Source: Geosiphon pyriformis
Lineage: Eukaryota; Glomeromycota; Glomeromycetes; Archaeosporales; Geosiphonaceae
NCBI GenBank assembly: GCA_016748015.1
Contig: JAAOMT010000503.1
Location: 303,258-367,257 of the forward strand
Length of the DNA stretch: 64,000 nucleotides
Direction of reading: 5' to 3'
Each line of letters opens with the position of its first letter. The stretch's first letter is position 1. The position numbers were made by a program, and so were the translations under genes. Positions 47,290-64,000 of the stretch are shown piece by piece. The notes below the pieces were generated by a model, which was not told the DNA's origin, made no database searches, and saw nothing but the letters and a program-made list of their open reading frames with translations.

Positions 47290-48732
47290 TTTTATTGCTT
47301 TATAAATGAGGTTCAAACATTACCTAGTATTATACATCAAAGAAATAATCTAAACTAGACATGAATCATGCATTTTCCACATGTGACCAACCATTTGGGC
47401 CGATTAGAACAACACTATACAGCTATGTGAACTAAAACAGAGTCACTTACATCTGAAAAAAATAAACAAGATTTGTGAAAGCCAAAATAAACACCAAAAG
47501 CATCGGCAATGCCAAGCAATTTGACCACTCCAGCCAAAAACTCTGAAGCCAAACCAGAAATTGAGACAAGAACTGAACCATCAAGGGAAATCAATCTATT
47601 TTTTTCTATGTAAGCACAATGTTTGGCACAAACTGACCAAACATTACTTCTAAGAGCAAGACTAAAAAAGTATACAAATTTAACAATCTCCAAACCAGCA
47701 ATTTTGAAATCATGAAAAACAGTAACTGTTTCATGGAACCAATCATTAAAAACAAAATTCTTAAAGAGCGCTATAGACAAAGAAGAGTCAGAAACACACA
47801 AAGACAAAAGTTGTAGTATGCCCGAAGAAGAATAAGAAAAACCAGAAACCATCTTTCAAAAGTTTACATGAGATTTCAACAACTGTCTCTGAACAGAATT
47901 ATCAATCTTATAAAAGAACACATGATCTGAAGCTTCCACATCGCCACAATATAAGCATAACACACTAGGATATAATCTATTATAAAGGCACTTCCGAACG
48001 GCAACTGGTAACTGGTGGTGTAAAGCCTTCATGAAATAAGTGCATGTATTAGCTGAAAGTCTGCTGGTGAAACCAGCAGCCATGTGCAAGTCAGGGTGCC
48101 ATACCAAAGATAAACAGTGCCAGTCAACCTCAGAAAGCAAACCACTCACCAAAATTCTGGAACCAAAACCAACCTTCCAGCATGTATGACAAATTGAATA
48201 ATAAATATTATGGACAAAATGTCTGGAATTGCCAGAAACCACAACACCATTAGTCATTATAAAGTGTTCACCCAAGTGAAAAGGAAAATACCAATCAGAA
48301 AAAGAAGCATCACTAGCAATTGTGTCAACACACTCATTTCTTGAAACACCAGAGTGGCCCTTAACCTTATGCCAGTTGACCTTCAAATTCTTACTGCAAA
48401 TAACATTAATAATATAATGATGTTCAATCCAACACTGATTACGAAAGTCGGAATACGTCAAACCCAATTCTGACTTACAAGCATCCAGAGCAGACTGACT
48501 ATCTGAAAACAAATTAACAGAATATAGAGAAGGGACATACTTCAAAGCCAGCACTATAGCCTGTAACTCCACCAAAGTAGATAACATCAAATCTGATACA
48601 CCAACACCCAAACCTAAATCAATGTCCTCAAAAAAGCCAGCAGCGCCAGCTCTACAGCCAACTGAGCCCAAATTACTAAGAGATTCATCTGTATATACTA
48701 ACAAATAATTAGTACTAATCTGTAAGAGACAA
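47290..48732 (-). mobile_element. LINE G, 3' part (RNase H to 3' end)
   Basis: 3' half of a LINE split by element A; the 5' half is at 62,581-64,000. A long open frame (48,704-47,856, 282 codons) carries RNase H (VYTDESLSNLGSVG, FEDIDLGLGVGVS, LFSDSQSALDACKSELG, WHKVKGHSGVSRNECVD) and the zinc-finger-like CLYCGDVEASDHVFFY, where the last Cys is Tyr. A second frame (47,852-47,415) has the C-terminal block (AKHCAYIEKNRLISLDGS, CLFFSDVSD). The 3' terminus has the shared GTTTGAACCTCATTTATAAAG-like end. Among the LINEs here this copy is relatively well preserved. Confidence 0.85.
47856..48704 (-). pseudogene. LINE G RNase H and zinc-finger-like region (282-codon open frame)
   Basis: Longest open LINE frame in the window. 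RNase H-like positions D (YTDES), E (LVELQAI), D (FSDSQSA) and the KGHSGV loop are in place. It is followed after ~100 residues by a C-x2-C-x8-H-x3 motif. Interrupted upstream by element A, so it cannot be translated with its RT. Confidence 0.7.
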
Positions 48733-49497
48733 TGTTACAGATAATTATTTGGGGTCTCAAGTCAAATAACAAATCCATAACTTGGTGCTTAGTTGGTACT
48801 TAGGTGTTGATATTTGAAAGTTTTGGTTGTGGAGTTCTTTGTATAATGGACAGAGATTTAATAGTTGTTTCAGTAGCCTCCCGGAATTGCAATTCCATCG
48901 AATTTTTTTCTTAGTATGGTGGCTGGTAATCCTTCTGGTAAGCTATTCTCAAATTTATGAGTGTTCTACCCTTGTTTCACGGATTTTTTACCAGTTCCTA
49001 TGACATCTGTATTTCAGTGCTTAATTCTTAATCAATTTAGTAAAACCAAAGAAATAACAAAAAGAAATAAAAAAAATAAAAAAAAATAAAAAAATAAACA
49101 AAAGCAATTGCAAGTTAGTATTCCATTAATAGCCATGATTAAGAGCTATTGTTCCAGCATGGTTAAGTATTAATTACTATCAACATGAAGTGTTGATAGT
49201 GGAGAGTGAATTTGCATGGTAAATAGTTATTTATTTGATATTTGTGAATGGAAGGTTGCTTAGATCAAATCTAAACTGAGAGGTCTGTCTTTTCTCCTTC
49301 TAATACTACTACTATATATACATAATTAATGTTCTATGAGATCACTCATATTTCTGAACAATGTGCTATGATTTCTTGAGCAATGTGCCATGATTTCTGA
49401 CATTGCTCCACATTGCTAAGCAATGTGCTTACATATTAAATACTATTCTTTCATTGGTCTGCTATTTTCTATATCTGTTTTCTTTTTATGAGTAACA
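48733..49497 (-). repeat. 3' LTR of element A
   Basis: 765-bp LTR, partner of 61,797-62,580. It contains TATATATA at 49,313-49,320 and, upstream of it on the minus strand, a tandem repeat of GAGCAATGTGCTATGATTTC-like units (about 49,333-49,430). Confidence 0.9.
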
Positions 49498-49499
49498 TT

Positions 49500-50379
49500 A
49501 TTTCTTCCTTTTTAATATTGAGCTCTGTCAAAATCTTTGTTTTAAATTAATTCCAATACTTCTTTTTCAAGTATTGTTTGTTCAACTCTGTTTCTCACAT
49601 CTTCTACTTGTGTATTGTTCATTCTTTCCTATTGGTTAATAGTTATGGTTTCTATGTTAGAGTATAACAGTATTTCTGGATAGTTTCAAAATATGTTGTG
49701 TAGTTGGTACATTGTTTTAACATGTAGTGTTGAATTCGTTTTCTTTCCGATAAATTCTTTAATTTGTTGTATTATGTCTTGGTTGAATATTCTCTTGGAT
49801 TTGTTGGTATATAACTCCTGAATATTCAACTTTCGACTTAACTGGTAGTAACAGTATGATATTAGAAGTTGTTCTGTTTATTGCTTCTAATTCTCTTTTG
49901 TAAGTTCTTTTGTTGGTGCCATAATTATTTTCCCAAAAATGTTCTTTACTTTTTCTATTATATTATCTGATCAGTTTTTATCATTTTTTGGTAATCACTG
50001 ATATGGGGTGTTTTTTGTCTTTTTTTTGGTGTTTTGATAGCAAATTGTTTGGTTGTTAATGATAATTTCCATGTCTAACAGTTGTTAACTTAAGGCCTGG
50101 AACAGTTGTTGAGCTATAGTGTGAATATAATCTGGTATTTTCATTTTTTTAGTTGCTTTTGTCGCGTGTATTGTGCCTTTATATACTCTTTTGGGTTGTT
50201 TGATTTGATGTGTTTGGTTCAATAACTATGATTGGTTCCAAATTTCATAGAATCTCATCTGGTTGAACTAGTATTCTTTGTACTCCTAGTTGTGGAATGT
50301 TATTGGTGGAAGATGATGCTATCTGGTAATATGGTTTCAGTCAATTACCATATGTTGCTTTGGCTAAAATTTTGTTGTC
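49500..50379 (-). pseudogene. Element A post-integrase ORF remnant
   Basis: Broken reading frame between integrase and 3' LTR. Its end (IIQQIKEFIGKKTNST, then NTQVEDVRNRVEQTIL and FDRAQY) aligns with the intact last ORF of element B (51,996-51,745) and the end of D. No known domain. Confidence 0.5.
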
Positions 50380-50849
50380 CTATCTTAATTTATAAGCTCC
50401 ATTTCCAAGAATTTTTTCTATGTAAAATGGTCCATCCCATTTGGGGTCAAATTTTCCACTCCATTGTTTTTCTGCTTTGGTATGATATAAAAGTACTTTG
50501 TCTTCAATCTTGAATTCAATTGGTTTATCTAGTAGTTGGTTATTGTGTCTTTTTTTTTGTCTTTCTTGTGACTTCTGGATGTTATTAGCTGTTCTTTGCT
50601 GTTTATTTTCTAATGTTTTCATTAAGTCATATGTTCTTCTTAGCAACATTTCCTGAAAATTATCTTTGGTTATTGGTTCTATTGGGTAAGTGTTGATTTT
50701 TATCTTAATTGGTAATGTTGCTGTTCTACCATATACTAATTCAAATGGTGTTGCTTGTGTAGTGTCTTGTTTCATTGTCCAATAAGCAAATAATACTGAT
50801 GGTATGAACAAATCCCATTTGTCTTGGTTTTCTTGACTGATTTTGGTAA
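50380..50849 (-). pseudogene. Element A integrase, C-terminal part (downstream of B)
   Basis: Open stretch continuing the integrase after the B insertion: ITKISQENQDKWDLFIPSVL, FAYWTMKQDTTQATPFELVYG, and the C-terminal DKVLLYHTKAEKQW with FDPKWDGPFYIEKILGNGAYKL. Equivalent to 14,030-14,520 of D, but less mutated. Confidence 0.8.
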
Positions 50850-51731
50850 TGTTACAGGTGATTATTTCTGTTGTTGTATTGAATAACAAACCCATAACTT
50901 GGTGCTCAAAAGCTATTGCTGTTGATAATGTTCTGAAGATTTTGTATTTAAAGATTTTGTATTTGAAGGTTTTGGTTGAGTCCTTTGTATAACGGACAGA
51001 GATTCAATAGTGTTGATAGTAGATGTATCTTTCCAAGAGTTTTCCCAATTTCTTTCTCAACATGATGGCCGGATTTAGTCTGGCAGTCGTGCTTTTCTGG
51101 TAAGCTATCTGATAATATATAAAATCCTACCCTTATTTCTGGGTCTTTTACCAGGCTATCCTTGACATCAATAACTCAGCGCTTAATTCTTTTACTCAAT
51201 TAGTAAACAACAAAAGAAAATAAAATAAAATAAAGAAAAATAAAAGAAAATAAAGAAAGAAAAGAAATAAGCCCAGATGGTATGGCAGATTAGTATTCCG
51301 TCAATAGCCATGATCAAGAGCTATTGTTCCAGTGTGGTTAAGTATCAATTACTATCAACATAAAGAATTGATAGTGAGGAGTGGATTGAGATATGAAATA
51401 ATTATTTATTTAATGATTGTGTTTCTAGGCTAAGAATTCTATGGTATCGATTCTGTCTTTTCTGTTTTTAATGCTACTGCTATATATACATAATTGAGAT
51501 TCTTCAATTCCTCAATTCTTCATGACAGGAATCCTAGAATTCCTGGAATCCTGCAATTTCTTTGAGAAAAATTCTGGAAATCTGGAATCCTGTAATTTCT
51601 CGTCGGAGAATCTTGAAATTTTTGGAATCCTGCAATTCCTGAAAGGAATCCTGGAATTCCACATTTATTATGCCTACTTCTGATTGGCTAATAATTAGAC
51701 TAATATATTTCCTATATTTCTATGAGTAACA
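50850..51731 (-). repeat. 3' LTR of element B
   Basis: 882-bp LTR, partner of 53,887-54,752. TATATATA at about 51,481-51,488. Upstream of it on the minus strand is a tandem GGAATCCTGGAATTCC-type repeat (about 51,520-51,662). Differences between the two LTRs that I inspected are nearly all transitions, for example CGGAC versus CAGAC. Confidence 0.9.
51520..51662 (-). repeat. GGAATCCTGGAATTCC minisatellite in B LTR
   Basis: Degenerate tandem units containing the palindromic words GGAATTCC and CAGGAATTC-like variants. Also present at about 54,530-54,680 in the other LTR. It sits upstream of the TATA box, as in the other LTR families. Confidence 0.75.
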
Positions 51732-51744
51732 TTATTTTCTCCTT

Positions 51745-52030
51745 TTAATATTGAGCTCTGTCAAAATTCAACTCATGTAATTCCCCCTCTTGAAGTATTT
51801 TCTGGATTTCATTTTTGAGAATTACTTGTGTTATTTGGGTCTGTAATTCTTCAAATTGAGCATTAGTGATTTTTCCCAATTGATTACTGGTAATCATATT
51901 CATTGCTTTGTTGCGCAATATTTCTGGTCTATCCTGAAATGCTGTATGTATTCGGTAGATGGCTTGGGCTTGTGTAGATAAGTTGTTCTTTCCCACAAAA
52001 TGTTCTAATTGTTGTAGTATTCTTGTGCAA
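51745..52030 (-). CDS. Element B last ORF (post-integrase domain, partial)
   Basis: Open frame to 51,745 that runs up into the viral segment without a clear start of its own. An in-frame GTG lies at 51,996, and homology to the equivalent ends of A and D begins a little further upstream, at about 52,025 (LQQLEHFVGKNN). Contains ITNAQFEELQTQITQVIL and ends NFDRAQY. It is uninterrupted, unlike the A copy. Function unknown. It marks the 3' junction between retroelement and captured sequence. Confidence 0.55.
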
Positions 52031-52436
52031 CATCTAATTGCGTAGCAGGTTGCGTGTAATCGTCATAATCAAATGTGATAAATGCATTACTTGATGTATT
52101 CGTATTAATAATTGGTATATATCGTATTTGTAAACTCATAAAATTATATTTATCATAAATGTCAGCTAGACCCCCGACCCAAGAAATTATAGCAGGATGT
52201 AACATAAGAGCTGTAGCAATAAACACACTCTGTTGGGATGCAATAAATCTATCAATGACAGCTGTTTTATCTATTATAATACTGGTTTTGTTTGCTAACT
52301 GGAAACGTACACCACGAGAAACTGGTGTATTAACTGTCTGATTTCTTAAATGCATTGGAAGATATGTAAAATTAGAACCACCTCTCACCAAACTGTGTGG
52401 AACTGTTTGAGGACAAACTTGATATCGAACTCCCAC
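52005..52436 (-). CDS. Capsid S-domain fragment of a tombus-/sobemo-like RNA virus, captured in element B
   Basis: Open frame of 143 codons, no stops. From about residue 85 the sequence has the hallmarks of the shell (jelly-roll) domain of small icosahedral plus-strand RNA virus coat proteins: HPAIISWVGG, then IYDKYNF, then the strand-turn-strand IRYIPI...NTNTSS followed by FITFDYDD and a Pro four residues on. This closely approaches the classical S-region signature (aromatic-x-Pro, small turn, aromatic-x2-Asp, Pro). Known family role: assembly of the capsid shell. The frame stops shortly after the FDYDD strand, so the second half of the S domain and any P domain are absent. There is no AUG at the beginning: a TAA precedes a GTG at 52,436, and the frame overlaps 52,372-52,851 by 65 nt. 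Host range of the source virus cannot be told; a fungal virus is plausible. Confidence 0.75.
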   Translation of the reverse strand: MGVRYQVCPQTVPHSLVRGGSNFTYLPMHLRNQTVNTPVSRGVRFQLANKTSIIIDKTAVIDRFIASQQSVFIATALMLHPAIISWVGGLADIYDKYNFMSLQIRYIPIINTNTSSNAFITFDYDDYTQPATQLDVAQEYYNN

Positions 52437-52851
52437 TTAAACTGAAGCATATTGAATGTGCTGGGGTAAATTGATTGAACGTAAAACTCTGACCGAACAC
52501 ATGTTTTGTGAAATTACAACTGCTGCAGCATTGTTTTGCCTGTGCGTATGTTTTCAATTCGATCTTGTATTCATGGTAAACACAGTGTTTCATGAAGCCA
52601 TCTTTTACCTCAAATTGACAATCGGCTGGACTTACGTTCAAACCAAAATGTTCATATAGAACCAAATTTGCTTTGATCAAATTCACGAGCTTGTTGTACA
52701 CTTTGTTATATCTTCGTAACTCTGTAGCATACTCAAAAATATCTTCAATATTTTCATCATGTAAAGTGAAGAAATGTTCTCTAAAGTTTTTGAATACAGT
52801 AACTTGTGTTTGGGCTGTTACAAATTTTTCTACTGTTGTGATTTTTTTCAA
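52372..52851 (-). CDS. Unidentified ORF in the captured segment of element B (possibly viral)
   Basis: Intact 159-codon frame starting with AUG, directly upstream of and overlapping the capsid-like frame by 65 nt in a different frame. It has no counterpart in elements A or D at this position. The N-terminal two thirds look globular and helical (NIEDIFEYATELRRYNKVYNK), with cysteines HCVYHEY and QCCSSCNF, and the C-terminus is Ser-rich (SGSSISSLSSNSS). I do not recognise the family. Small RNA viruses often have the coat frame overlapping the end of the preceding frame, so this could be the upstream viral protein; it may also be a separate host mRNA fragment. Confidence 0.5.
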   Translation of the reverse strand: MKKITTVEKFVTAQTQVTVFKNFREHFFTLHDENIEDIFEYATELRRYNKVYNKLVNLIKANLVLYEHFGLNVSPADCQFEVKDGFMKHCVYHEYKIELKTYAQAKQCCSSCNFTKHVFGQSFTFNQFTPAHSICFSLSGSSISSLSSNSSTQFGERWF

Positions 52852-53227
52852 AAACTCAGTGCAGACTATTTGAAAAGTGTGTTGTTGTTGTTGTTTGTTG
52901 GGGTGGTAGCTGAAGTGGCTGCTGTATGGGTTTGGCTATAAGATTAATCGGCAGTTGATCAATGATGATTACTGGAGGTAAGTTTTGCTGATTAATTAAT
53001 TTGGGGTTTTGATTTCTTTGATTTGGCGGCATTTGAATATTTGGAGTTTCAATTTCCAGATTTTCTAACTGTTGCTGAGTTTGAATGTTCAGGATTTCAA
53101 CTTCCGTGTTTTCAGTGATTGGATGCTAGTAAGTGAATTCTTAATCCTCTAATTCTTCTTCCTCCTTTTCTGATTCTGCTGCTTCCCACGGATCAGAGAT
53201 TCCGAAATCTGGTGGAGGCAATGGTGA
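52852..53227 (-). pseudogene. Element B Gln/Pro-rich linker after leader ORF
   Basis: Minus-strand reading has LPPVIIIDQLPINL, QQPLQLPPQQ and a run of Thr, equivalent to the linker between leader ORF and gag of element A (about 61,140-60,743). The similarity stops at the Thr/CAA-rich stretch (about 52,880-52,895), which is the 5' junction with the captured sequence. Contains two stops. Confidence 0.5.
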
Positions 53228-53824
53228 TCAAAGTCCTGATGGGGTTGATGATCGCGAATTAAATCTCTCAAAGTATTCGCTGTATGGTCCTAACAATTCT
53301 GTTTTCCTTTGTCTACTTTGGAATGAGAATCGTCCAAATGTTAATGTCACAGTTGATGGGAATGCATCAGTTGATGATATGTTGATGGCACTTCCAGGTG
53401 TATAGTGGTATAATAAGTTACTTGGGGATTCAACTCTGTTTTTCTTCCAAGCAGGTGACTGTGTTTTTCGGGGTGTTACTGCTGGTGTTTGTAATTTTCT
53501 CTTGCCTTTACTAGTGTATGTAATTGGATATCTTTGTTGAGTGTGGTGTTTAATTTCTTTGTTGATCTCAGTGATGATGGATGCAAAATTATGGTTTGTT
53601 GGTAGGTTGGTGTTTTGAATTAATTCCTTATAGAAAGTTTCTCTTGCTGATTCAGTATTCACTGGTGTTCCTAATAAAGAGGAAATCTTTTTGTTGACAT
53701 AAAAATTGAAGGCTGATTCGGCGGATATATGATTGTGGTTTAATCCCAAGTATTGACAATAGTGTTGAAATAAGGATTTTGTGAATCCTAAATGGTTTGC
53801 TCCTATAATTTCTGATTCTGCCAC
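53228..53824 (-). CDS. Element B leader ORF (N-terminal gag-like protein, 198 aa)
   Basis: Intact frame beginning MAESEIIGANHLGFTKSLF. It aligns along its first ~115 residues with the element A leader (61,736-61,389), and contains a helical region (HYCQYLGLNHNHISAESAFNF, TEINKEIKHH) and a basic, Ser/Thr-rich second half. No named domain. It is uninterrupted in B while the A copy breaks, which suggests B is the younger or less mutated element. Starts about 60 bp from the primer-binding site. Confidence 0.65.
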   Translation of the reverse strand: MAESEIIGANHLGFTKSLFQHYCQYLGLNHNHISAESAFNFYVNKKISSLLGTPVNTESARETFYKELIQNTNLPTNHNFASIITEINKEIKHHTQQRYPITYTSKGKRKLQTPAVTPRKTQSPAWKKNRVESPSNLLYHYTPGSAINISSTDAFPSTVTLTFGRFSFQSRQRKTELLGPYSEYFERFNSRSSTPSGL

Positions 53825-53886
53825 TTTTGGTTTGGTGTTGTCGGTGCTGGTTCTTTGTAGGATTATACTTCACAGGGAGCACCAAA

Positions 53887-54752
53887 TGTTACAGGTGATT
53901 ATTTCTGTTGTTGTATTGAATAACAAACTCATAGCTTGGTGCTCAAAAGCTATTGCCATTGATGATGTTCTGAAAGTTTTGTATTTGAAGGTTTTGTATC
54001 TGAAGGTTTTGGTTGAGTCCTTTATATAACAGACAGAGATTCAATAATGTCAATAGTAAATGTATCTTTCTAAGAGTTTTCCCAATTTTTTTCTCAGCAT
54101 GGTGGCCAAATTTAGTCTGGCAGTTGTGCTCTTCTAGTAAGCTATCCAATAATATATAAAATCCTACTCTTATTTTTGGGTCTTTTACCAGGCTATTCTT
54201 GACATCAATAACTTAGCGCTTAATCCTTTTACTCAATTAGTAAACAACAAAAGAAAATAAAATAAAGAAAATAAAGAAAGAAAAGAAATAAACCCAGGTG
54301 GTGTGACAGATTAGTATCCTGTTAATAGCAGTGATTAAGAGCTATTGTTCCAGTGTGGTTAAGTATCAATTACTATCAACATAAAGGGTTGATAGTAAGG
54401 AATGGATTGAGATATGAAATAATTATTTATTTGATGATTGCATTTCTAGACTAAGGATTCTGTGGTATCGATTCTGTCTTTTTTGTTTTTAATGCTACTG
54501 CTATATATACATAATTGAGATTCCTCAATTCCTCAATTCTTCATGACAGGAATCCTGGAATTCCTGGAATCCTGCAATTTCTTTGAGAGGAATCCTGGAA
54601 TTCTGAAATCCTGTAATTCTTCATCAGGGAATCCTGAAATTCCTGGAATTCTGCAATTCCTGAAAGGAATCCTGGAATTCCACATTTATTATGCCTACTT
54701 CTGATTGGCTAATAATTAGACTAATATATTTTCTATATTTCTATGAGTAACA
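53887..54752 (-). repeat. 5' LTR of element B
   Basis: 866-bp LTR with TGTTAC...GTAACA ends, TATATATA at 54,502-54,509 and the GGAATCCTGGAATTCC repeat at about 54,530-54,680. The adjacent internal sequence carries the primer-binding site. Confidence 0.9.
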
Positions 54753-56992
54753 GTGATTGCTTTACACAATGTTCTGTTAAATTTTTCAACTAGTCCATTG
54801 GTTTGTGGATAATATAGTAATGATAATGGTCTTTTGATTCCAAATCTCTGACTTAATTCTGCTAATGTTCTGTTTACAAAGTGAGTTCCTTGATCTGATA
54901 ATAGTTTTTTTGGACATCCATATCAACAGATCAAATCTTAATGAACGAATTCAGCAATGAATTCTGCATTTGTTCTTTAAATGGCTTTTGCTTCTGGCCA
55001 TTTAGTAAGATAATCCATAGCTACTACAATATATCTGTTGCCTCTGCTGGTAATTGTTAATGGTCTAACTAAGTCAATTCCAATGTGATCGAATGGTTGT
55101 CCCACTTTGATTGGTCTTAATGGTTCACTGGGTTTTGTTCCTCCTCTTTTCTGACAAGCATCACAATTTTAAACATATTAGATGATGTCTGAATACATTG
55201 ATAGCCAATAGTATCTTTTTCTGGTTTTTTCTATGGTTGTTTCTTTATGAAAATGTCCTGCTGTTGGGTCTAAGTGCATGTTGAATAATATTGTCTTTTT
55301 CTTTGGTTTTGTGATTACTCTGATTGGTTGATCTGGATTTCTTCTGTTCTTCTAATAAAGTATATTTTGATGATTGATAAAATATTTTGATTGTTGTTTA
55401 ATGTTCCTTTGTTCCTTTTGAGATAATTTCTCCTTGAACAGTTGGGTATTTATATAATGTTGTAGTTGTTGGTATTTTTGTATATTTATCTTTTGTTATA
55501 TTTTTGGTTTGAAATGTTTTTAGATTTGTCTTATTCATGATAGTCCATCAACATTTCCATTGTCTTTTCCCTTTTTATAATGTACTATATAATTAAATGG
55601 TGAAAGTTCTATTTTCTATCTGGCATAGCAATCATCTGCAAATTCTTGTTTTTGAATTGAAGTCAATCCTTTGTGATCAGTGTACACTTCAAACTTTTGG
55701 CTCAAGTATTCCTTCTATTTGATGACAGCCCAATAGATAGCTAAGTATTTTAGTGCTGGAGTTCTATAGTTCTTTTCAGCTGGACTTAAGCTTCTACTGG
55801 CATAAGCTACTGGATGTTTTTTTCTATTGGGTCTTTTCTGTGAAAGTACTGCTCTCAATGCTTGGCCTGATGTATCAGTAGTGATTATGAATAGTTTGCT
55901 GTAGTCTGAATACATCAATACTAGAGCTTAAATAAGCTTTCTTCTTAATATATCAAAAGCTTCTTGTTGAGTTTCTGTCCATTCATACTTCACATTTTTT
56001 GTTTGGAGTTGATGTAGTGGTTGAGCTATTTTAGAAAAGTCCTTAATAAAGTGGTGGTAGTATTCGGCAAATTCCAAGAATGCTCTTAATTCTGTAAGAT
56101 TATTTGGTACTGGAAAGTTCTTGACAATCTCAATTTTGTCTGGATCTGTTTTGATTCCATCTTTGCTCACTACATGTTCCAAAAACTCGAGTTCAGTTTT
56201 GCCAAAGAAGCAGTTATTGGTATTTAGTTTCAATTCTGCTTGTCTGAGTTTTTCAAATACTTGTTGGAGATGATGTAGATGGTTATCAAATGTCTTAAAA
56301 AATACATTTGTGTTGTCTAAGTATATGACTACTGATTTTCATAGTAATCTAGTATAGACAATTTCTATGAGTTGTTGGAATGTTGCTGAAGCATTCATCA
56401 AGCCAAATAGCATGATTTCAAATTCAAAATTCCCTTTTTTTGTCATGAATACAGTCTTTTCTTTGTCAGCTGAGTCCATGGCTACTTGCCAGTATTCACT
56501 ATCTAAATCTAGTGTTAAGAACCATTTATTTTCTCCAAAAGTGTCAAATAGTTCTTGGATCTTTGGAGTTGGATAGCTGTCTCTTTTGGTTACTCCATTT
56601 AATTTCTGATAATCTACATAAAAGCAAATTTTTCCATTTTTCTTCTAGACTAGTACCACTGGTGATGACTATGGACTCATCGATGGCTGAATTAGCCTAT
56701 TGTTAAGCATTTGGTTGATTTCTTGATGAATAATTTCATGGCTAGCTAGTAGTACTCTGTATGCTCTTTGTTTAATTGACATTGCATTTCCAGTTTTGAT
56801 CTGATGTTAGATGATATTGATATGGCCAAATTTATTTTTGCTCACAAAGATGTTATTGAAATTGTTGAGTAACATCTTTAATTGCATCTGTTGGAGTGAG
56901 TCTAGATTTCCCATGTTTATCTGTTCCAACTGCTCTGGTTGAAGCAGATAACATTCACTTCGTTCGTAAATAGTCTGTAATGTAATGTCCAT
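54753..56992 (-). pseudogene. Element A RT, RNase H and integrase core
   Basis: Read right to left. RT: INQMLNNRLIQPSMSP, KKNGKICFYVDYQKLNGV, FLTLDLDSEYWQVAMDS, FEIMLFGLMNASATFQQL, the catalytic box YLDN (YLDD expected), then FLEHVVSKDGIKTDPDKIEI. RNase H (55,918-55,540): LFIITTDTSGQALRAVLS, RSLSPAEKNYRTPALKYLAIYW, VYTDHKGL. Integrase zinc finger ends NCDACQK. The core keeps the triad: D in IGIDLV, D in LLSDQGTHF, E in GLVEKFNRTL. The core is cut at 54,752 by element B. Stops and frameshifts occur, so it is a pseudogene although the integrase active site survives. Confidence 0.85.
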
Positions 56993-57054
56993 ATATTTGC
57001 AAAGTTGTGGAAAATCTGGAATGTGGTTTGGTGGTTAATTCTCAACTTGAGTGG

Positions 57055-58089
57055 TTAAATATTCAATGATAGTTCTCTTTGGTATTTTGATGACCTTTTC
57101 AGTTGTGTTATAGATGGGAATTTTGATGTTTTGGGGCTGTTGGCTGAGATGTAGAAATTGGTGAGTCCAATCTCTCCTGATTCACAAATGGTGGCTTCTG
57201 CTTCAAACAATTGAGCTTGATCTTTTACTTCTCTTTTTATGACTAACATATACTGGTCATATGGTGGAATAGAAATTAATTGATAGGTTGAGATAATTTT
57301 TCTTTTGTCAACAATTTCTTTCTCTGCCATATTAACTGGTATATCTATTTTACTCATTGATCTGAATCTCTGTATTCCTCTAGCTGTAATCCTTAATTTT
57401 TCCCTGTTTCCCACTAACACTAACTGCATTATTTTCACCAAAGGTAGGAATATTGCCTGTGTTATCTTTTCATTTGGATCTATGATATATGTTTTTTCTG
57501 AGTCATTTTGTAGCATAGCAATAATATTTCTTATGTATTCTGTGTTAATTATTCCTCCTCTGATGTTGATTCCTTTTTTTGCTAAACTACTTCTGGATAT
57601 TAATTGAACCATTGTTGCTGGAATTTCCAGTACTATTTTCAGATCAATGCAAGTATGCAAGTGAGATTCCAATTTGATAGGATCTTTCTCTGGATATCTC
57701 AGATCAAATCCTGCATCAGTATCATGCACACATTCAGGCATAATATCTTCATTATTATCACTGAACCATTTCAGTTCTTGCTCCTTGGTAAGATTAGGGA
57801 GAGTGATATATGTTTCAGAGTTTGAATCAGAATCCGAATCATTGTTATTTTTATTGCTGTTTTGAGTGGAGCTAGAACTGGTGTTTTCATCGTCATCATT
57901 GTCAGAGTTTGAGTTAGGATTGAAAATTGATTCCGATTCTGATGCACAGTTGCTCATTAGTTCATCTTCTTCTGGGATTATGTAGATTATACGTGGTGGT
58001 GGATTGTAAATGAGGTCACACTTATTACAATACTTGAAGTCACATGGGATCAAACAGTGGTCACATAATTGGGTGTTTATTTCTTCCAA
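57055..58089 (-). CDS. Element A dUTPase-containing ORF (344 aa)
   Basis: Long open frame between protease and RT. The N-terminus has CDHCLIPC and YCNKCDLIYNPPPR (paired cysteines, putative zinc ligands), followed by an acidic Ser/Asn-rich linker. The dUTPase domain spans about residues 118-250: HDTDAGFDLRYP (motif 1), SRSSLAKKGI (2), GGIINTEYIRNI (3), AQAIF/TQAIFLPLV (4) and RGIQRFRSMSK (5, where the canonical Gly-rich arm RGxGGFGS has lost Gly residues). Motif 2 and the motif 3 Tyr are in place, but the Asp expected in motif 3 is Asn. Reaction in the family: dUTP to dUMP and PPi. Activity here is doubtful. Same position as in element D. Confidence 0.8.
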   Translation of the reverse strand: MEEINTQLCDHCLIPCDFKYCNKCDLIYNPPPRIIYIIPEEDELMSNCASESESIFNPNSNSDNDDDENTSSSSTQNSNKNNNDSDSDSNSETYITLPNLTKEQELKWFSDNNEDIMPECVHDTDAGFDLRYPEKDPIKLESHLHTCIDLKIVLEIPATMVQLISRSSLAKKGINIRGGIINTEYIRNIIAMLQNDSEKTYIIDPNEKITQAIFLPLVKIMQLVLVGNREKLRITARGIQRFRSMSKIDIPVNMAEKEIVDKRKIISTYQLISIPPYDQYMLVIKREVKDQAQLFEAEATICESGEIGLTNFYISANSPKTSKFPSITQLKRSSKYQRELSLNI

Positions 58090-58239
58090 ACATTGTTCCT
58101 GTTCTTCTCTGGTGAGTGTTAATTGTTAGTAATGTTCATGGAATTCCTCTGGATTATCTTTGATGTTGCCAAAGACATCAAAAGTTTGGATGTATTCAGA
58201 TTCAAGAAGTAATAAAGGGTTGTTTTTGATTTCTAGTAG

Positions 58240-59040
58240 TTTACTGGTTGTCACACTTTCTGCTTTCGCATATGCCATTTTCCAGAGTTTATGTTTGTTG
58301 TAGGGATATTTTTTTAATTGTCACAACACTCTTTTTCAGGCATCATTGATTGGTATGCCTTTGCGTACCCAATCGTTGATTAGGATTGTATATTGGCACA
58401 TTTCATCGCATGTTTTTCCTCATTCAGAAATGTTGTTTCACATTTTTTTGTCTGGAAGAGTTTTTTTACAAGTTAAACATGGTGTATTATCCCATTTTCT
58501 CACTTGTTTTGGCCTTTTAAAACATTTAACGAGACATGCATGGCAATAAAACTTAGTTGCCATCTGGTATTCTTTGTCATCACCACAGCATGCACCCATT
58601 AAAAACAATTTCTTGCTGCAATCAGCACATATAAGCTTTGGTCGACAATAATTTGGTTGTGGTAGTGCATAAGTATATGCATGGTGAATGGTGATTGGTG
58701 TTGGAATTTTTTTGTTCTCTTTCTTTTTTCCTTTGTGGTTATCCTCTTCCCACTCCCAGGTTGTTGGTAGTTCATTTTGATTATTGTCAGTTCCCTAGGC
58801 TTGATCTGAATTCCAGGTAAGTTCTTTTGTTTGTTTTCTTTTTTCTTTATTGTCCCAGGATAGTATTGGTGGTAATTTGTTGTGGTTATTTTCATTGGCC
58901 CAGGAAACTTGATAGGCTTCCCAGGTAGGTTTTTCCTTTTCTTTTTCCAATTTGATAAGTGGAGCTGATGGCATGGTGATGGGATTTGAAATGGCCACAC
59001 GTGGCTAGTATGCATGTGTGTCGTCCGTTCTGGCTAAGCT
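58240..59040 (-). pseudogene. Element A cysteine-rich module and linker
   Basis: Minus-strand reading around 58,640-58,380 shows CADCSKKLFLMGACCGDD, then FYCHACLVKCFK and NTPCLTCKK, matching D at 10,260-10,440. Upstream (59,015-58,650) the frame is a Lys/Asn/Pro-rich repeat-like linker with three ~45-residue units containing WEAYQVSWANENN/WDNKEKRKQ/TWNSDQA. Broken by stops. Putative zinc-binding; no named family. Confidence 0.5.
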
Positions 59041-59086
59041 AGAGCTCTTAGGTGTTTTAGTCAAGTGTCACATTGATTTTGAACAG

Positions 59087-59527
59087 TCAGTCATTACTCA
59101 TCAGTGCTTGGTATTGAGTGGCTTCCATAACTAATACCTTGATTGGTACAGTGATGCCATTGATTTCTATAGGCAAGTTATTTATTTTACTAATTGGAGT
59201 CTTGGTGGCTCCATCAGCTGTAATTATCTTTGCACTGGCAGCTTGATTAACTTGGTGACCTAATTGGTTTATGAGCTGTCTTGTGATGATGCTGCCAGCT
59301 AATCTACTATCTAGGATCAGTTTAATAGACTGACTGTCAATTTTGGCATCCGTGTACATCACTGTAATAGGTTTTTTCTCAAGTATGGCTCCACTGAACA
59401 AAGAGGTTTCTGTTGGTTTCTCGATTTCAAAGGGAAATATTACTGCTAGAAACTCGTCTTCCATGATAGTGGCTGGCAGAATATTGGTAAGTGGTTGCTT
59501 TTGGTTGGGTTTCCAGGTGTTGGGCAA
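59087..59527 (-). pseudogene. Element A aspartic protease
   Basis: Retropepsin-like fragment: LILDSRLAGSIITRQLINQLG, KIITADGATKTPIS and ATQYQALMSND. The active-site triplet is DSR where D has DSG, a single G-to-A/C-type change that should abolish catalysis. Preceded by a Pro/Asn-rich linker. Confidence 0.75.
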
Positions 59528-59863
59528 GGTGTCTTCTGGAGTAACCAGAAAGCTTAAATAGTTCTGAGAACTCGGGTTTTAAGTATACCCAGTTCCCGAA
59601 TTCTGCTGTCATCATCTTAATGGCTGGTTGGATGAACTAGGAATTGGTTGGTGAACAACCATTGCTGATCTCCAGTTTTGAGTGACTCTTGATCTAGGGT
59701 TTCCTGATGTCATTTGAGTGGAATTGGGTGATGGTGTTTAATAGATTATTTGTGGCTGCAGCTGATATATAGGTTGGGACTGTAGTTGATAAACAATGGG
59801 TGCTGTTGGCTGATAAATTGGCAGTTGATAAATTTGTGGCTGCATCATAGGTATGTAATTTGG

Positions 59864-60742
59864 TTAATATATTACTGAGATTGATGGATAACTCAGAGCT
59901 GAAAACCTGCAATCAGAGTTTTGATATTGATTTTTCAATTGTTGGTTTTCTATTTTTAACTGACAATTAATTCTCAAATGTTCTTGTTTACTACAGTAGT
60001 GGCAGATATGCATCTCTTGCTGCCACGGCTGATTAGATGATAATAAGAAACGCAACTGATTTTGTGGGTAATTTGTGATTCCTAAATTATTGCATTGTTA
60101 GGATGGTTGATAAATTGTGTGATTGTCAGCTAAGTATCCTTCCAGCTTCTGGTTAATGGAATTACTGAATTGTTTCAATTTGGAATCTAATTCAGATGAT
60201 CCATTCATCACTAGATTTATGGCTTGGGCATGATTGGCTTTGAGTTCAGCTGCTTCAAAATCTCTGGCGTTGTTAATTGCAGCTTGAAGGTCTACTGGAT
60301 GCATTGGGTGTATGCATTGGAGGATGCTACTGTGCAGGCCTCTAATAAATTGGTTTAGGATTTGTGGCGCTGTAAAATAATCAGCCTAAATTGCTTGAAT
60401 CTGGTGCAAATTCCTATGGAAGCATCTTAGGTAAGTAGTAACTGCTTTATTTTTCCCTTGTTTGATAGTGGTGAAAGTGTTTGCTAGCCGATTAATACTA
60501 TTGTTGTTGCTGAAGTATTGTAGGAATGCAAGCTTGAATGCAGCAAAATCTTGGAGTTTGTTAGCCAAGCTTTGATACCATAAATTGGCAGTATTTTGAA
60601 GAAAGTAAAAAATGACCTGCATGGCTCTGGCATTATTCCAGCTGTTGGCTGCGATGGCTTTTTCCATATCATTTAGCCACACTTGGGTGTTATTTTCTTT
60701 ACTGGTGAATTTCTCAAGTTTTGCTATCAGAGCGTAGGCCAT
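59864..60742 (-). pseudogene. Element A gag with intact CCHC zinc knuckle
   Basis: Starts MAYALIAKLEKFTSKENN (60,742), gag core with AIAANSWNNARAMQVIFYFL, TANLWYQSL, QYFSNNNSINRLANTF and TTYLRCFHRNLHQI; one stop near 60,386. The following piece (60,304-60,098) ends EGYLADNHTIYQ. A zinc knuckle of the exact CX2CX4HX4C type (CHYCSKQEHLRINC) lies at about 60,005-59,960. These parts package RNA in Ty3-like particles. Confidence 0.8.
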
Positions 60743-61159
60743 TGGATCGACATTTGGTTGTTGCAGTTGTTGTTGTGGCTGTTGAAGCAGCTGCTGTGGT
60801 TGTTGAGGTGGTTGAAGTAGCTGCTATTGCTGTTTGTTGATTGGTGGAGCTGAATTAATCCTGATTACTAAAGGTAAGTGTTGTTAATTATTGATGTCAG
60901 GGTTTTAATTGTTCTGATTGTGCTGCATTTGGAAATTCAGAGTTCTGATTTCTGGATTTTCCAAATCTGGATTTTGTTAAGTCTGAAAATTCGGGGTTTC
61001 AATGTTTGGGTTTTCTAGGATTGGGTTCTGATAAGTAAATTCTTGATCTTCAGATTCTTTTTCCTCTTCTTCTTGTTCTTTCTCTGATTCCATTACTTTC
61101 TAGAGACTTGCGATTCCGAAATCTGGTTGGAGTGGTGGAGATTGAAGTCCTGATGGCAT

Positions 61160-61736
61160 TGGTGATCAGAACTTAAATCTTTCAAAATACATGCCATATG
61201 GTCCTAGAAGATTTTTTTCTTTTGTTTACTCTAAAATGGGAATTGTCCAAAGGTTGATGTCACATGTGATGTGAACGTGCCTGTTGATGTAATGTTGATG
61301 GTGCTTCTAAGTGTATAGTGATATGATGAGTTTGTTGATGATTCAACTCTGGTTTTCTTCTTAGTGGGTGGTTGTATTTGTTTTGGTGTTACTGCTGTGT
61401 TTGCAATTTTTCTTTGTCTTTACTGGCATAAGTAATTGGGTATCTTTGTTGTGTACAATGTTCAATTTCTTTATTAATCTCAGTAATGATGGATGCGAAA
61501 TTATAATTTGTTGATAAGCTGGTGTTTTGGATTAATTTGTGGTAAAAAGTTTCTTTTGCTGATTCAGTGTTTACTGATGTTCTTAACAAATAAGCAATTT
61601 TTTCATTGACATAGAAATTAAAGACTGATTCTGCTAATATCTGATTGTGGTTCAATCCCAAGTGTTGACAGTAGTGTTGAAATAAAAATTTTGTGAATCT
61701 TAAATGGTTTGCTCCTATACTTTTTGATTCTGCCAC
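61160..61736 (-). pseudogene. Element A leader ORF (broken)
   Basis: Begins MAESKSIGANHLRFTKFLF at 61,736 and is open to 61,389 (115 codons), then frameshifts. Collinear with the intact leader ORF of B (53,824-53,228). The downstream remnants share PYGMYFERF-like and SGL ends with B. Confidence 0.65.
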
Positions 61737-61796
61737 TGTTGATTTATTTGTTGGTGCTGGTTCTCTGTAGGATTATACTTTACAGGAAGCACCAAA

Positions 61797-62580
61797 TGTT
61801 ACAGATAATTATTTGGGGTCTCAAGTCAAATAACAAATCCATAACTTGGTGCTTAGTTAGTACTCGGGTGTTAATATCTGAAGGTTTTGGTTGTGAAGTT
61901 CTTTGTATAATGAACAAGGATTTAATAGTTGTTTCAGTAGCCTCTCGGAATTGCAATTCTGTTGAATTTCTTTTTCAGTGTGGTGGCCAGTAATCCTCCT
62001 AATAAGCTATTCTCAAATCTATGAGTGTTTTACTCTTGTTTTATGGGTCTTTTACCAGTTCCTATGATGTCTGTATCTTAGTGCTTAATCTTTAATCAAT
62101 TTAGTAAAACCAAAGAAATAACAAAAAGAAATAAAAAAAAATAAAAAAAAATAAAAAAAATAAACAAAAGCAATTGCAAGTTAGTATCCCATTAATAGCT
62201 GTGATCAAGAGCTATTGTTCCAGTATGGTTAAGTATTAATTACTATCAACATGAAGTGTTGATAGTGGAGAGTAGATTTGGATGGTAAATAGTTATTTAT
62301 TTGATATTTGTGAATGAAAGATTGCTTAGATCAAATCTAAACTAAGAGGTTTGTCTTTTCTCCTTTTAATACTACCACTATATATACATAATTGATGTTC
62401 TATGAGATCGCTCACATTTCTGAGCAATGTGCTATGATTTCTTGAGCAATGCTTATATTGCTGAGCCATGTGCTCTAATTTCTAACATCACTCCATATTG
62501 CTAAGCAATGTGCTCACGTGCTAAATACTATTCTCTCATTGGTCTGCTATTTTTTATATCTGTTTTTTTTATAAGTAACA
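61797..62580 (-). repeat. 5' LTR of element A
   Basis: 784-bp partner of 48,733-49,497. TATATATA at about 62,379-62,386, with the GAGCAATGTGCT tandem repeat upstream of it on the minus strand (about 62,408-62,520). Confidence 0.9.
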
Positions 62581-64000
62581 ATAATTACAAACAAAAACAA
62601 AGTTCTGAGATTTAAGAATGTTCAAAGAACCAACATTATCCAAAACTAAAGGGCAAGTGGGAGATAGACTTTCACTATTTAGAAATACAACAAAAAGCTC
62701 AAACTATTTAGGAACTGGGCCATAGAGGTCCAATCTTTTTTAATGCTTGAAAGTATACCAATCAAAGACAGAACTATGATGATCACAAAGTTGATCCACA
62801 AAAGCAATACCATACCACTGGAAAGAAGGGAAAAACCTAAAAAACTGTAACTTGCCCAGAACAACAAACATAAGAACTCCACCATGAAACTAAAAGGGAT
62901 TGGCCAGAGAGCCACTCAGGGACAAATTGCAATCAAGAAGAATGCGAACCATGTCTACCAGAAGTTATCAGAAGCACTGACACAAATACACACAGAAAAA
63001 CTCAATGGATGAACAGGATGCCAGCACAGAACTTGCAAGTTATGGGATCTGTGAGAGAACAAATGACCCAAGATGCCACCAAAGTTTGCAAAACTAACAA
63101 AAGAGGCCACTTTGCTCTCTGACTGAACCTGAACAAAAGACTTCAAACCATAGAAGAAAGGGTAATGGATTATATTACTAAGAAAATCAAGAGGTAAGCC
63201 AAATTTGAACTTCAAGCTCTTATAAATCAAAACATTCCACTTGTTACATATACTAATGAGAACAAAGCTAAACTGCATTCTATAACTAACTATAGAATAA
63301 AAAACCACTAATACCAAATATAAGAACTGCTTATCTAAGACAGTTTTTCTCAAGACCAGATTGGTAAAAAAACAAATGTCTGAATTTGCTTTCGCCAAAC
63401 TAGGCTTTGACAGTCCTTCAATTGATAGAAAAATACCCAAATATTGATGAGATTTACCCTTTTTGACAATGGAAATAGGCGAGCCACTGATAGAAAGAAA
63501 AGGAGTGCTAATTCTGCTATTGATAGAAATGGCCACTGTTTTATTGTTATTAATAGAAATATTATTTATCCAAAAAAATTCATTTGCAATATCAAGAATA
63601 TGTTGAGTAGCTGCCTAACTACAACCAATTCAAATTGTATCATCAATAAAAGTGCTAGCAGCAAAAAAAGAAGAGAGCCCAGTCTGGGACTCAGCACAAT
63701 CATTCCTTGAAATAAAATAAAAATTTAACTTATAACTACACATGTTTTTCTGTCTCTTAACTTCACATAGCAGAGGATCATAAAATATACACCACAGAAG
63801 AGGAAAAAAGACCTCCCTTTGGTTCAAACCATTATGTACACAATAACCATCCATTAACCCAAAATCTGTCATCATTCTGTTGGTACAATCTTTATGAATA
63901 CCACCGAAAAACCAAATGAACCTGCTGCACATCTTGATCCTAACCAAACTTTTCTCAAGATATACCCAGCTGACTGAATTATATGCTTTTTACATATCTT
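62581..64000 (-). mobile_element. LINE G, 5' part (RT), running out of the window
   Basis: RT part of the LINE whose 3' half is 47,290-48,732. Near 63,830-63,760 is the RT motif B region (GLNQREVFFPLLW, IFYDPLLCEV). The catalytic box reads FIDDTIR at about 63,640. The palm/thumb follows (SPISIVKKGKSHQYLGIFLS, 63,490-63,420) and the connection region (YPFFYGLKSFVQVQ, CWHPVHPLSF). Ends at element A (62,580). Frames are interrupted by stops. Endonuclease and the start lie beyond 64,000. Confidence 0.85.

What the first reader, a model, noticed from the sequence alone, without database searches (positions are those of the whole stretch)
50850..54752. LTR retrotransposon that has replaced gag-pol with an RNA-virus capsid fragment
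Element B has two good LTRs, a primer-binding site and a near-perfect 4-bp duplication, and keeps only the first and last ORFs of its family. In place of gag through integrase it carries about 860 bp (about 52,030-52,890) that includes a recognisable half of a tombus-/sobemo-like coat S domain. Related elements A and D in the same window have no such sequence, so it was gained. The simplest model is RT switching from retroelement RNA to a viral RNA and back within a particle, then integration. That would be a direct record of how plus-strand RNA virus genes enter a genome, and possibly a mobile unit that spreads a capsid fold.
Basis: partly seen in the sequence, partly recalled or inferred. 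Interest (0 to 1): 0.92.

Follow-up and report, generated by a model that had tools for sequence, protein, structure and literature searches.

The report
Retrotransposon carrying an RNA-virus coat fragment
In the fungus Geosiphon pyriformis a copy of a common jumping gene has lost its own core genes and carries in their place a piece of a virus coat gene, and a second copy elsewhere carries a piece of a viral replication gene, which suggests that the jumping gene's copying enzyme wrote viral sequence into the genome.

Summary
Element B (50850-54752, minus strand) is a Ty3-order LTR retrotransposon with 4-bp target repeats (GTAA/GTGA), nested in a related element's integrase region. Against 16 fetched relatives, about 7.1 kb holding gag through integrase is missing at sharp breakpoints and replaced by 853 bp (52028-52880). 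The insert holds half of a tombus-/sobemo-like coat S domain (Pfam Viral_coat E 2.6e-9), cut off at the breakpoint; the other half of the insert is an unidentified open frame. No other copy was found in the genome, which is that of Geosiphon pyriformis. Following this up, I found a second chimera (contig C370): a broken alpha-like helicase/RdRp fragment inside a related LTR element, with its own 4-bp target repeat and different breakpoints. A third RdRp fragment (C366) has rearranged pieces of the family on one side. Capture by reverse-transcriptase template switching is the best explanation; DNA-level replacement after integration is not excluded. A 'mobile unit spreading a capsid fold' is not supported: one copy, half a domain. 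Precedent exists (eBxnv-1 in a nematode LTR element), so this is a well-resolved new member of a known kind.

The parts
50846..50849 (.). target-site repeat, left copy (GTAA)
   Evidence: empty site by joined flanks
50850..51731 (-). 3' LTR of element B (TGTTAC...GTAACA ends)
51732..51745 (-). polypurine tract AAAGGAGAAAATAA next to the 3' LTR
   Evidence: sequence
51746..52027 (-). retained 3' internal part of the family ('last ORF' region)
   Evidence: matches 15 of 16 fetched relatives
52028..52880 (-). 853-bp foreign insert in place of about 7.1 kb of gag-pol
   Evidence: breakpoints; one place in the genome
52028..52436 (-). coat-related open frame; Viral_coat S-domain match at residues 75-136 (52029-52214), truncated by the junction
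52372..52880 (-). second open frame of the insert (168 codons, element sense), no relative found
52881..53886 (-). retained 5' internal part of the family, with ORF1 (53228-53869)
   Evidence: 39 other scored matches start at window 52870-52895 and run to 53886
53871..53884 (-). primer-binding-site-like TGGTGCTCCCTGTG, 2 bases inside the 5' LTR (tRNA not identified)
   Evidence: sequence
53887..54752 (-). 5' LTR of element B
54753..54756 (.). target-site repeat, right copy (GTGA)
48731..62586 (-). element A, the related LTR element in whose integrase region B sits (LTRs 48731-49503 and 61795-62586)

Best explanation
Element B is a non-autonomous Ty3-order retrotransposon copy in Geosiphon pyriformis that took up an RNA-virus cDNA fragment. 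Inferred mechanism: inside a particle made by full-length relatives, reverse transcriptase copied the 3' end of element RNA, switched at about 52027 to a virus RNA of the same sense, copied about 850 bases of it, and switched back at a CAA-rich tract at about 52881 into the element's 5' region, skipping gag-pol. Integrase supplied in trans then inserted the chimera into element A with a 4-bp target repeat. Shown: element anatomy, breakpoints, foreign insert with one place in the genome, coat homology, target repeat, and a second chimera of the same general kind. Inferred: that switching happened during reverse transcription, and that the template was RNA. B has no gag or pol and half a coat domain, so it is most likely an inert molecular fossil.
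For: Sharp replacement of gag-pol against 16 relatives; gag, protease, dUTPase, RT, RNase H and integrase in that order in full-length copy L036; empty site and 4-bp repeat; coat homology reaching the junction; two sense open frames covering the insert (168 and 136 codons; 0 of 2000 shuffles have two of at least 136); one place in the genome; repeat or short shared tracts at the junctions; no short pre-capture element among the 40 scored of 1510 candidates. Second chimera at C370: left LTR and 3' internal part, then a viral helicase (E 9.1e-7) and RdRP_2 fragment (E 1.5e-32, six stops) antisense to the element, then LTR interior joined in an A-rich tract, then LTR end, with target repeat ATAT/ATGT.
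Against: The chimera is a single copy, so replacement of gag-pol after integration would leave the same picture. B's insert is sense and C370's antisense, so there is no orientation rule. No source virus was found. Half of the insert is unidentified, and its G+C by codon position (0.39/0.28/0.34) differs from that of the coat frame (0.45/0.39/0.19), so the two halves may have different sources. The C366 case shows family sequence on one side only.
Confidence: 0.77

Rival explanations
1. A full-length element integrated first; later a double-strand break deleted gag-pol and the gap was patched with a viral cDNA made by a cellular reverse transcriptase.
For: Only one place in the genome carries the insert; short shared tracts at the junctions also fit end joining.
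Against: Needs a separate viral cDNA plus a 7.1-kb deletion at one place. A second, independent case shows the same kind of loss.
Confidence: 0.16
2. The coat fragment comes from a single-stranded DNA virus with a tombus-type coat (cruciviruses, recalled), so no RNA template was needed.
For: The S domain alone cannot tell the two sources apart; no tombus-type RdRp in the genome by PF00998 (a search that rang in none of its 14 controls and so does not show absence).
Against: No relative in viral contigs. RdRp fragments of RNA viruses are present in this genome next to the same LTR group.
Confidence: 0.07
3. The coat match is chance or the locus is an assembly join.
For: AlphaFold without relatives gives no usable model (pLDDT 30.7). 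No read data were available.
Against: E 2.6e-9; matches to coat proteins of several solved virus structures; clean nested insertion with target repeat.
Confidence: 0.02
4. The captured frame is kept and used by the fungus, for example as a source of antiviral small RNA or an interfering coat fragment.
For: Two long open frames persist; NCBI carries a gene model over the locus (P0005); interference by capsid fragments is discussed for fungal viral genes (PMC2805616, passages).
Against: Age is unknown and may be too short for decay. The gene model is a prediction; no expression data were seen.
Confidence: 0.05

Closest known systems
eBxnv-1, nodavirus-like RdRp inside a Bel/Pao LTR element, Bursaphelenchus xylophilus (Cotton et al. 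2016, PMC5177903; abstract, Results and Discussion read)
   Same: Plus-strand RNA-virus fragment inside an LTR element, single copy; the authors speculate on copy-choice by the element's RT.
   Different: There RdRp, here coat. There gag is lacking but pol parts remain; here all of gag-pol is replaced. There only insertion fragments and isolated LTRs of the element were found; here 16 relatives give exact breakpoints. Host is a fungus, element Ty3-order, and a second chimera exists.
LCMV-IAP recombinants (Geuking et al. 2009, Science; only its reference entry in PMC5177903 seen; virus, element and mouse host recalled)
   Same: Recombination between an LTR element and an exogenous RNA virus, then integration.
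   Different: Experimental mammalian system, negative-sense virus (recalled).
Virus sequence in a host plant genome attributed to recombination of viral and host RNAs (Tanne and Sela 2005; reference entry only)
   Same: Natural non-retroviral RNA-virus sequence in a genome.
   Different: Plant host; [quoted passage not shown]
Non-autonomous LTR elements with captured host genes, such as maize Bs1 (recalled)
   Same: gag-pol partly replaced by foreign RNA-derived sequence between intact LTRs.
   Different: Captured sequence is a host gene there, viral here.
Endogenous totivirus genes in yeasts (Taylor and Bruenn 2009, PMC2805616; 12 of 23 passages shown)
   Same: RNA-virus capsid and RdRp genes in fungal genomes.
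   Different: Chromosomal viral genes of a dsRNA virus; an LTR context was not described in the passages shown.

Membership tests
Ty3-order (Metaviridae-like) LTR retrotransposon, the source family | gag and aspartic protease; RT and RNase H before integrase | tested here: met
   on full-length copy L036
Ty3-order LTR retrotransposon, element B itself | Two LTRs with TG...CA ends, PBS, PPT, short target repeat | tested here: met
   (tRNA of the PBS not identified)
Ty3-order LTR retrotransposon, element B itself | Own gag and pol (autonomy) | tested here: not met
   about 7.1 kb missing; B is a non-autonomous derivative
Viral coat S-domain family (PF00729) | Profile score over the curated cut-off | tested here: met
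   37.7 bits against 23, profile positions 57-122 of 207
Viral coat S-domain family (PF00729) | Complete jelly roll | tested here: not met
   homology stops at the junction; the later part of the profile is absent
Viral coat S-domain family (PF00729) | Jelly-roll fold by structure prediction | tested here: inconclusive
   pLDDT 30.7 without relatives
Tombusviridae or Solemoviridae | Matching RdRp and genome plan | not testable with these tools
   only a coat fragment present; no PF00998 match in the genome, in a search that rang nowhere
LTR-element-captured endogenous RNA-virus element (eBxnv-1 kind) | Non-retroviral virus fragment between LTRs, absent from relatives of the element | tested here: met
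LTR-element-captured endogenous RNA-virus element (eBxnv-1 kind) | Chimera formed during reverse transcription | tested here: inconclusive
   junction tracts and a second case support it; DNA-level replacement not excluded
14-3-3 protein (considered for the upstream frame) | Alignment to the host's 14-3-3 proteins better than shuffles | tested here: not met
   124 of 1000 and 198 of 1000 shuffles score as high

The most novel reading that the evidence does not exclude
In Geosiphon this Ty3-order group of LTR elements is a habitual writer of RNA-virus genes into the genome: each of the three virus-gene fragments found here (coat at C386, alpha-like replicase at C370, RdRP_1 at C366) is joined to or lies beside its sequence, the first two inside copies with target repeats, with different breakpoints and orientations. 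Reverse transcriptase may switch both between same-sense RNAs and, at the A-rich LTR tract, from element DNA to a viral RNA.
Probability: 0.4. Interest if true: 0.75.

Novelty: new member of a known kind. Interest (0 to 1): 0.6.

Why it matters
How genes of RNA viruses without reverse transcriptase enter genomes is often inferred from bare fragments. Here the vector element, its relatives, both breakpoints and the target repeat are readable for one event, and a second event in the same genome has another virus gene, another orientation and other breakpoints. That makes the copy-choice model testable, and it points to a host genome where its frequency could be counted.

Tried and rejected
The upstream frame (P0002) gave a weak PDB match to 14-3-3 proteins (E 0.14). 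Against the two host 14-3-3 genes it was no better than shuffles, so that was dropped; the frame stays unidentified. Pfam, PHROGs, NCBIfam, PDB, the 5.8-billion protein set (32 candidates, none at E <= 1) and viral contigs gave no convincing relative for it (the weak listings there have E 0.025 or worse). For the coat frame the protein set gave none of 2 candidates, and with a longer query only the locus's own NCBI record among 82 candidates; viral contigs gave none by protein, by alignment (42 stretches, none confirmed) or by motif pattern (25 loci; best tblastn E 1.8). Two AlphaFold jobs without relatives were uninformative, so no fold search was run. LTR divergence was considered as a clock and rejected: it is almost all transitions. 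A short pre-capture element was sought and not seen among the 40 scored of 1510 candidates. Literature: no held paper has both 'Geosiphon' and 'endogenous viral'; among the titles listed (15 of 27; 20 of 34; 15 of 1605; 5 of 5; 2 of 2; 15 of 16) I saw no fungal LTR-virus capture. Most subscription papers are not held, the Geosiphon genome paper among those not seen.
Full report
Where it is. The window is part of contig C386 of a 124.7-Mb, 406-contig assembly. The coat frame is identical to part of NCBI protein G9A89_021535 of Geosiphon pyriformis, on a contig of 944,922 bases, the length of C386. Geosiphon is a glomeromycete fungus. The NCBI gene model runs from ORF1 through both frames of the insert, leaving out stretches between them; it is a prediction, not evidence of expression.

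The element. B has LTRs at 50850-51731 and 53887-54752, a polypurine tract and a PBS-like tract, and target repeats GTAA/GTGA. It sits in the integrase region of element A: the flanks joined with one repeat removed give a 600-base query that aligns to 15 of 16 fetched relatives, 14 without gaps, over their integrase region; L040 gave no hit. A full-length relative (L036) has gag, aspartic protease, dUTPase, RT, RNase H and integrase in Ty3 order.

The replacement. I searched the genome with B's internal part; 40 of 3105 candidates were scored, and the 39 other than B itself match only from window 52870-52895 to 53886. I fetched 16 of these as loci of about 10 kb. In 16 of 16 the 5' match ends at 52870-52895, and in 15 of 16 the 3' match resumes at 52022-52027, with about 7.1 kb between in the relatives (about 7.4 in L042); L040 has no 3' match in the stretch held. 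B has 853 bp there. At the 5' junction B reads through a CAA-repeat tract that most of the fetched relatives have in shorter form; at the 3' junction the shared sequence begins at about AAGAATAC.

The insert. On the minus strand, which is the element's sense, two open frames cover it: 168 and 136 codons. In 2000 dinucleotide shuffles the longest frame reached 168 in 2, and none had two frames of 136 or more. The downstream frame hits Viral_coat (E 2.6e-9, profile 57-122 of 207, residues 75-136) and coat proteins of solved structure, among them Sesbania mosaic virus, Southern bean mosaic virus and tomato bushy stunt virus (best E 9e-6). The match runs up to the junction, so the later part of the domain was not captured or was lost there. 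The upstream frame has no recognisable relative, and its G+C by codon position differs from that of the coat frame, so it could come from another gene or another RNA. Insert DNA, coat protein and the Pfam profile find only this place in the genome. The upstream protein finds itself, 42 short matches to its 22 residues of element sequence, and one weak partial match (E 0.118, four stops). The insert's CpG ratio is 0.69, against 0.09-0.39 in the element parts of B and 0.87-0.98 at two host gene loci, in line with a later arrival.

A second chimera. Screening the genome for virus replicases, PF00978 gave one hit at C370:2520036-2521307 (E 1.5e-32, six stops in frame). Pieces searched apart show a viral superfamily-1 helicase (E 9.1e-7) upstream and RdRP_2 in two open stretches (E 4.6e-13 and 6.2e-16). 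To the left lie an LTR and about 430 bases of the 3' internal part of an element related to A; to the right the RdRp passes, in an A-rich tract, into the interior of an LTR that then runs to its end. Outside, the two flanks match neighbouring stretches of one other element (window 13016-12637 and 12638-11668), in a part that aligns with the RT region of L036. The target repeat is ATAT/ATGT, read by eye. The viral piece is antisense to the element, and the retained 3' part is longer than in B (about 430 against 296 bases), so this is an independent event. ORF1, gag-pol, the PBS and the inner part of the right-hand LTR are missing. Its two LTRs differ by 68 transitions and 3 transversions over 486 aligned bases.

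A third case, weaker. PF00680 gave one hit at C366:1716786-1717403 (E 1.3e-12; 51.5 bits again; that family also rang in one of 14 control genomes). On its left lie an inverted LTR piece, an LTR end with PPT, and a dUTPase-region piece of the family: 567 of 601 bases of L080 match the family, none of the 1210 of L082 that follow. On its right, 1717411-1717999 was not fetched and 1718000-1718600 has no match. So of five virus families whose genome search was answered (PF00729, PF00978, PF00680 with one hit each; PF00998 and PF01660 with none, both ringing in no control), 3 of 3 hits adjoin this LTR group. As a small control, 0 of 2 host 14-3-3 loci of 3.3 kb do. Outside 48700-62600, 6394 of 50099 window bases match the family. 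The family is abundant, so adjacency alone is not rare; the two cases inside copies with target repeats carry the weight.

Mechanism. Copy-choice during reverse transcription explains loss of gag-pol and gain of virus sequence in one step and puts both between LTRs before integration. It is inferred. A later DNA-level patch would leave the same anatomy in a single copy; the second case makes that less likely. For C370 I suggest, as inference only, that element DNA ending in the T-rich strand of the LTR tract primed on A-rich viral RNA.

Age. LTR pairs differ almost only by transitions: B 68 to 2, and 494 to 15 over 15 other pairs measured on the part of the 3' LTR held (the 16th copy, L040, had no 3' LTR in the locus). 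Between copies the excess is smaller, 12.3 to 1 over 120 pairs. Rates are about threefold higher at CpG but present in all contexts. LTR identity is therefore not a clock here, and the few transversions would allow a young age.

Against the literature. The closest case read is eBxnv-1 (PMC5177903), whose authors propose the same route. Myers et al. 2020 (PMC7482067, passages) report viruses in 88.9% of nine Glomeromycotina samples and a tymo-like virus in Geosiphon, so possible donors exist.

Noticed in passing
G000:C370:2517187-2521790 (L079, L077): Second LTR element of a related subfamily with an antisense, broken alpha-like helicase/RdRp fragment and target repeat ATAT/ATGT.
   Followed up: partly
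G000:C366:1715600-1717410 (L080, L082): RdRP_1 fragment in a long open frame beside rearranged pieces (inverted LTR piece, LTR end with PPT, dUTPase region) of the same LTR group.
   Followed up: partly
window 50850-54752 and L032-L047: LTR pairs diverge almost only by transitions (68:2 in B, 494:15 in 15 other pairs), in all C contexts with about threefold more at CpG: a repeat-directed or methylation-linked mutation process is likely in this fungus.
   Followed up: partly
window 52372-52880: 168-codon open frame in the insert with no relative in any library tried; low-confidence model (pLDDT 40) shows helices followed by strands.
   Followed up: partly
window 57055-58125 and L036: The LTR family encodes a dUTPase between protease and reverse transcriptase.
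   Followed up: no
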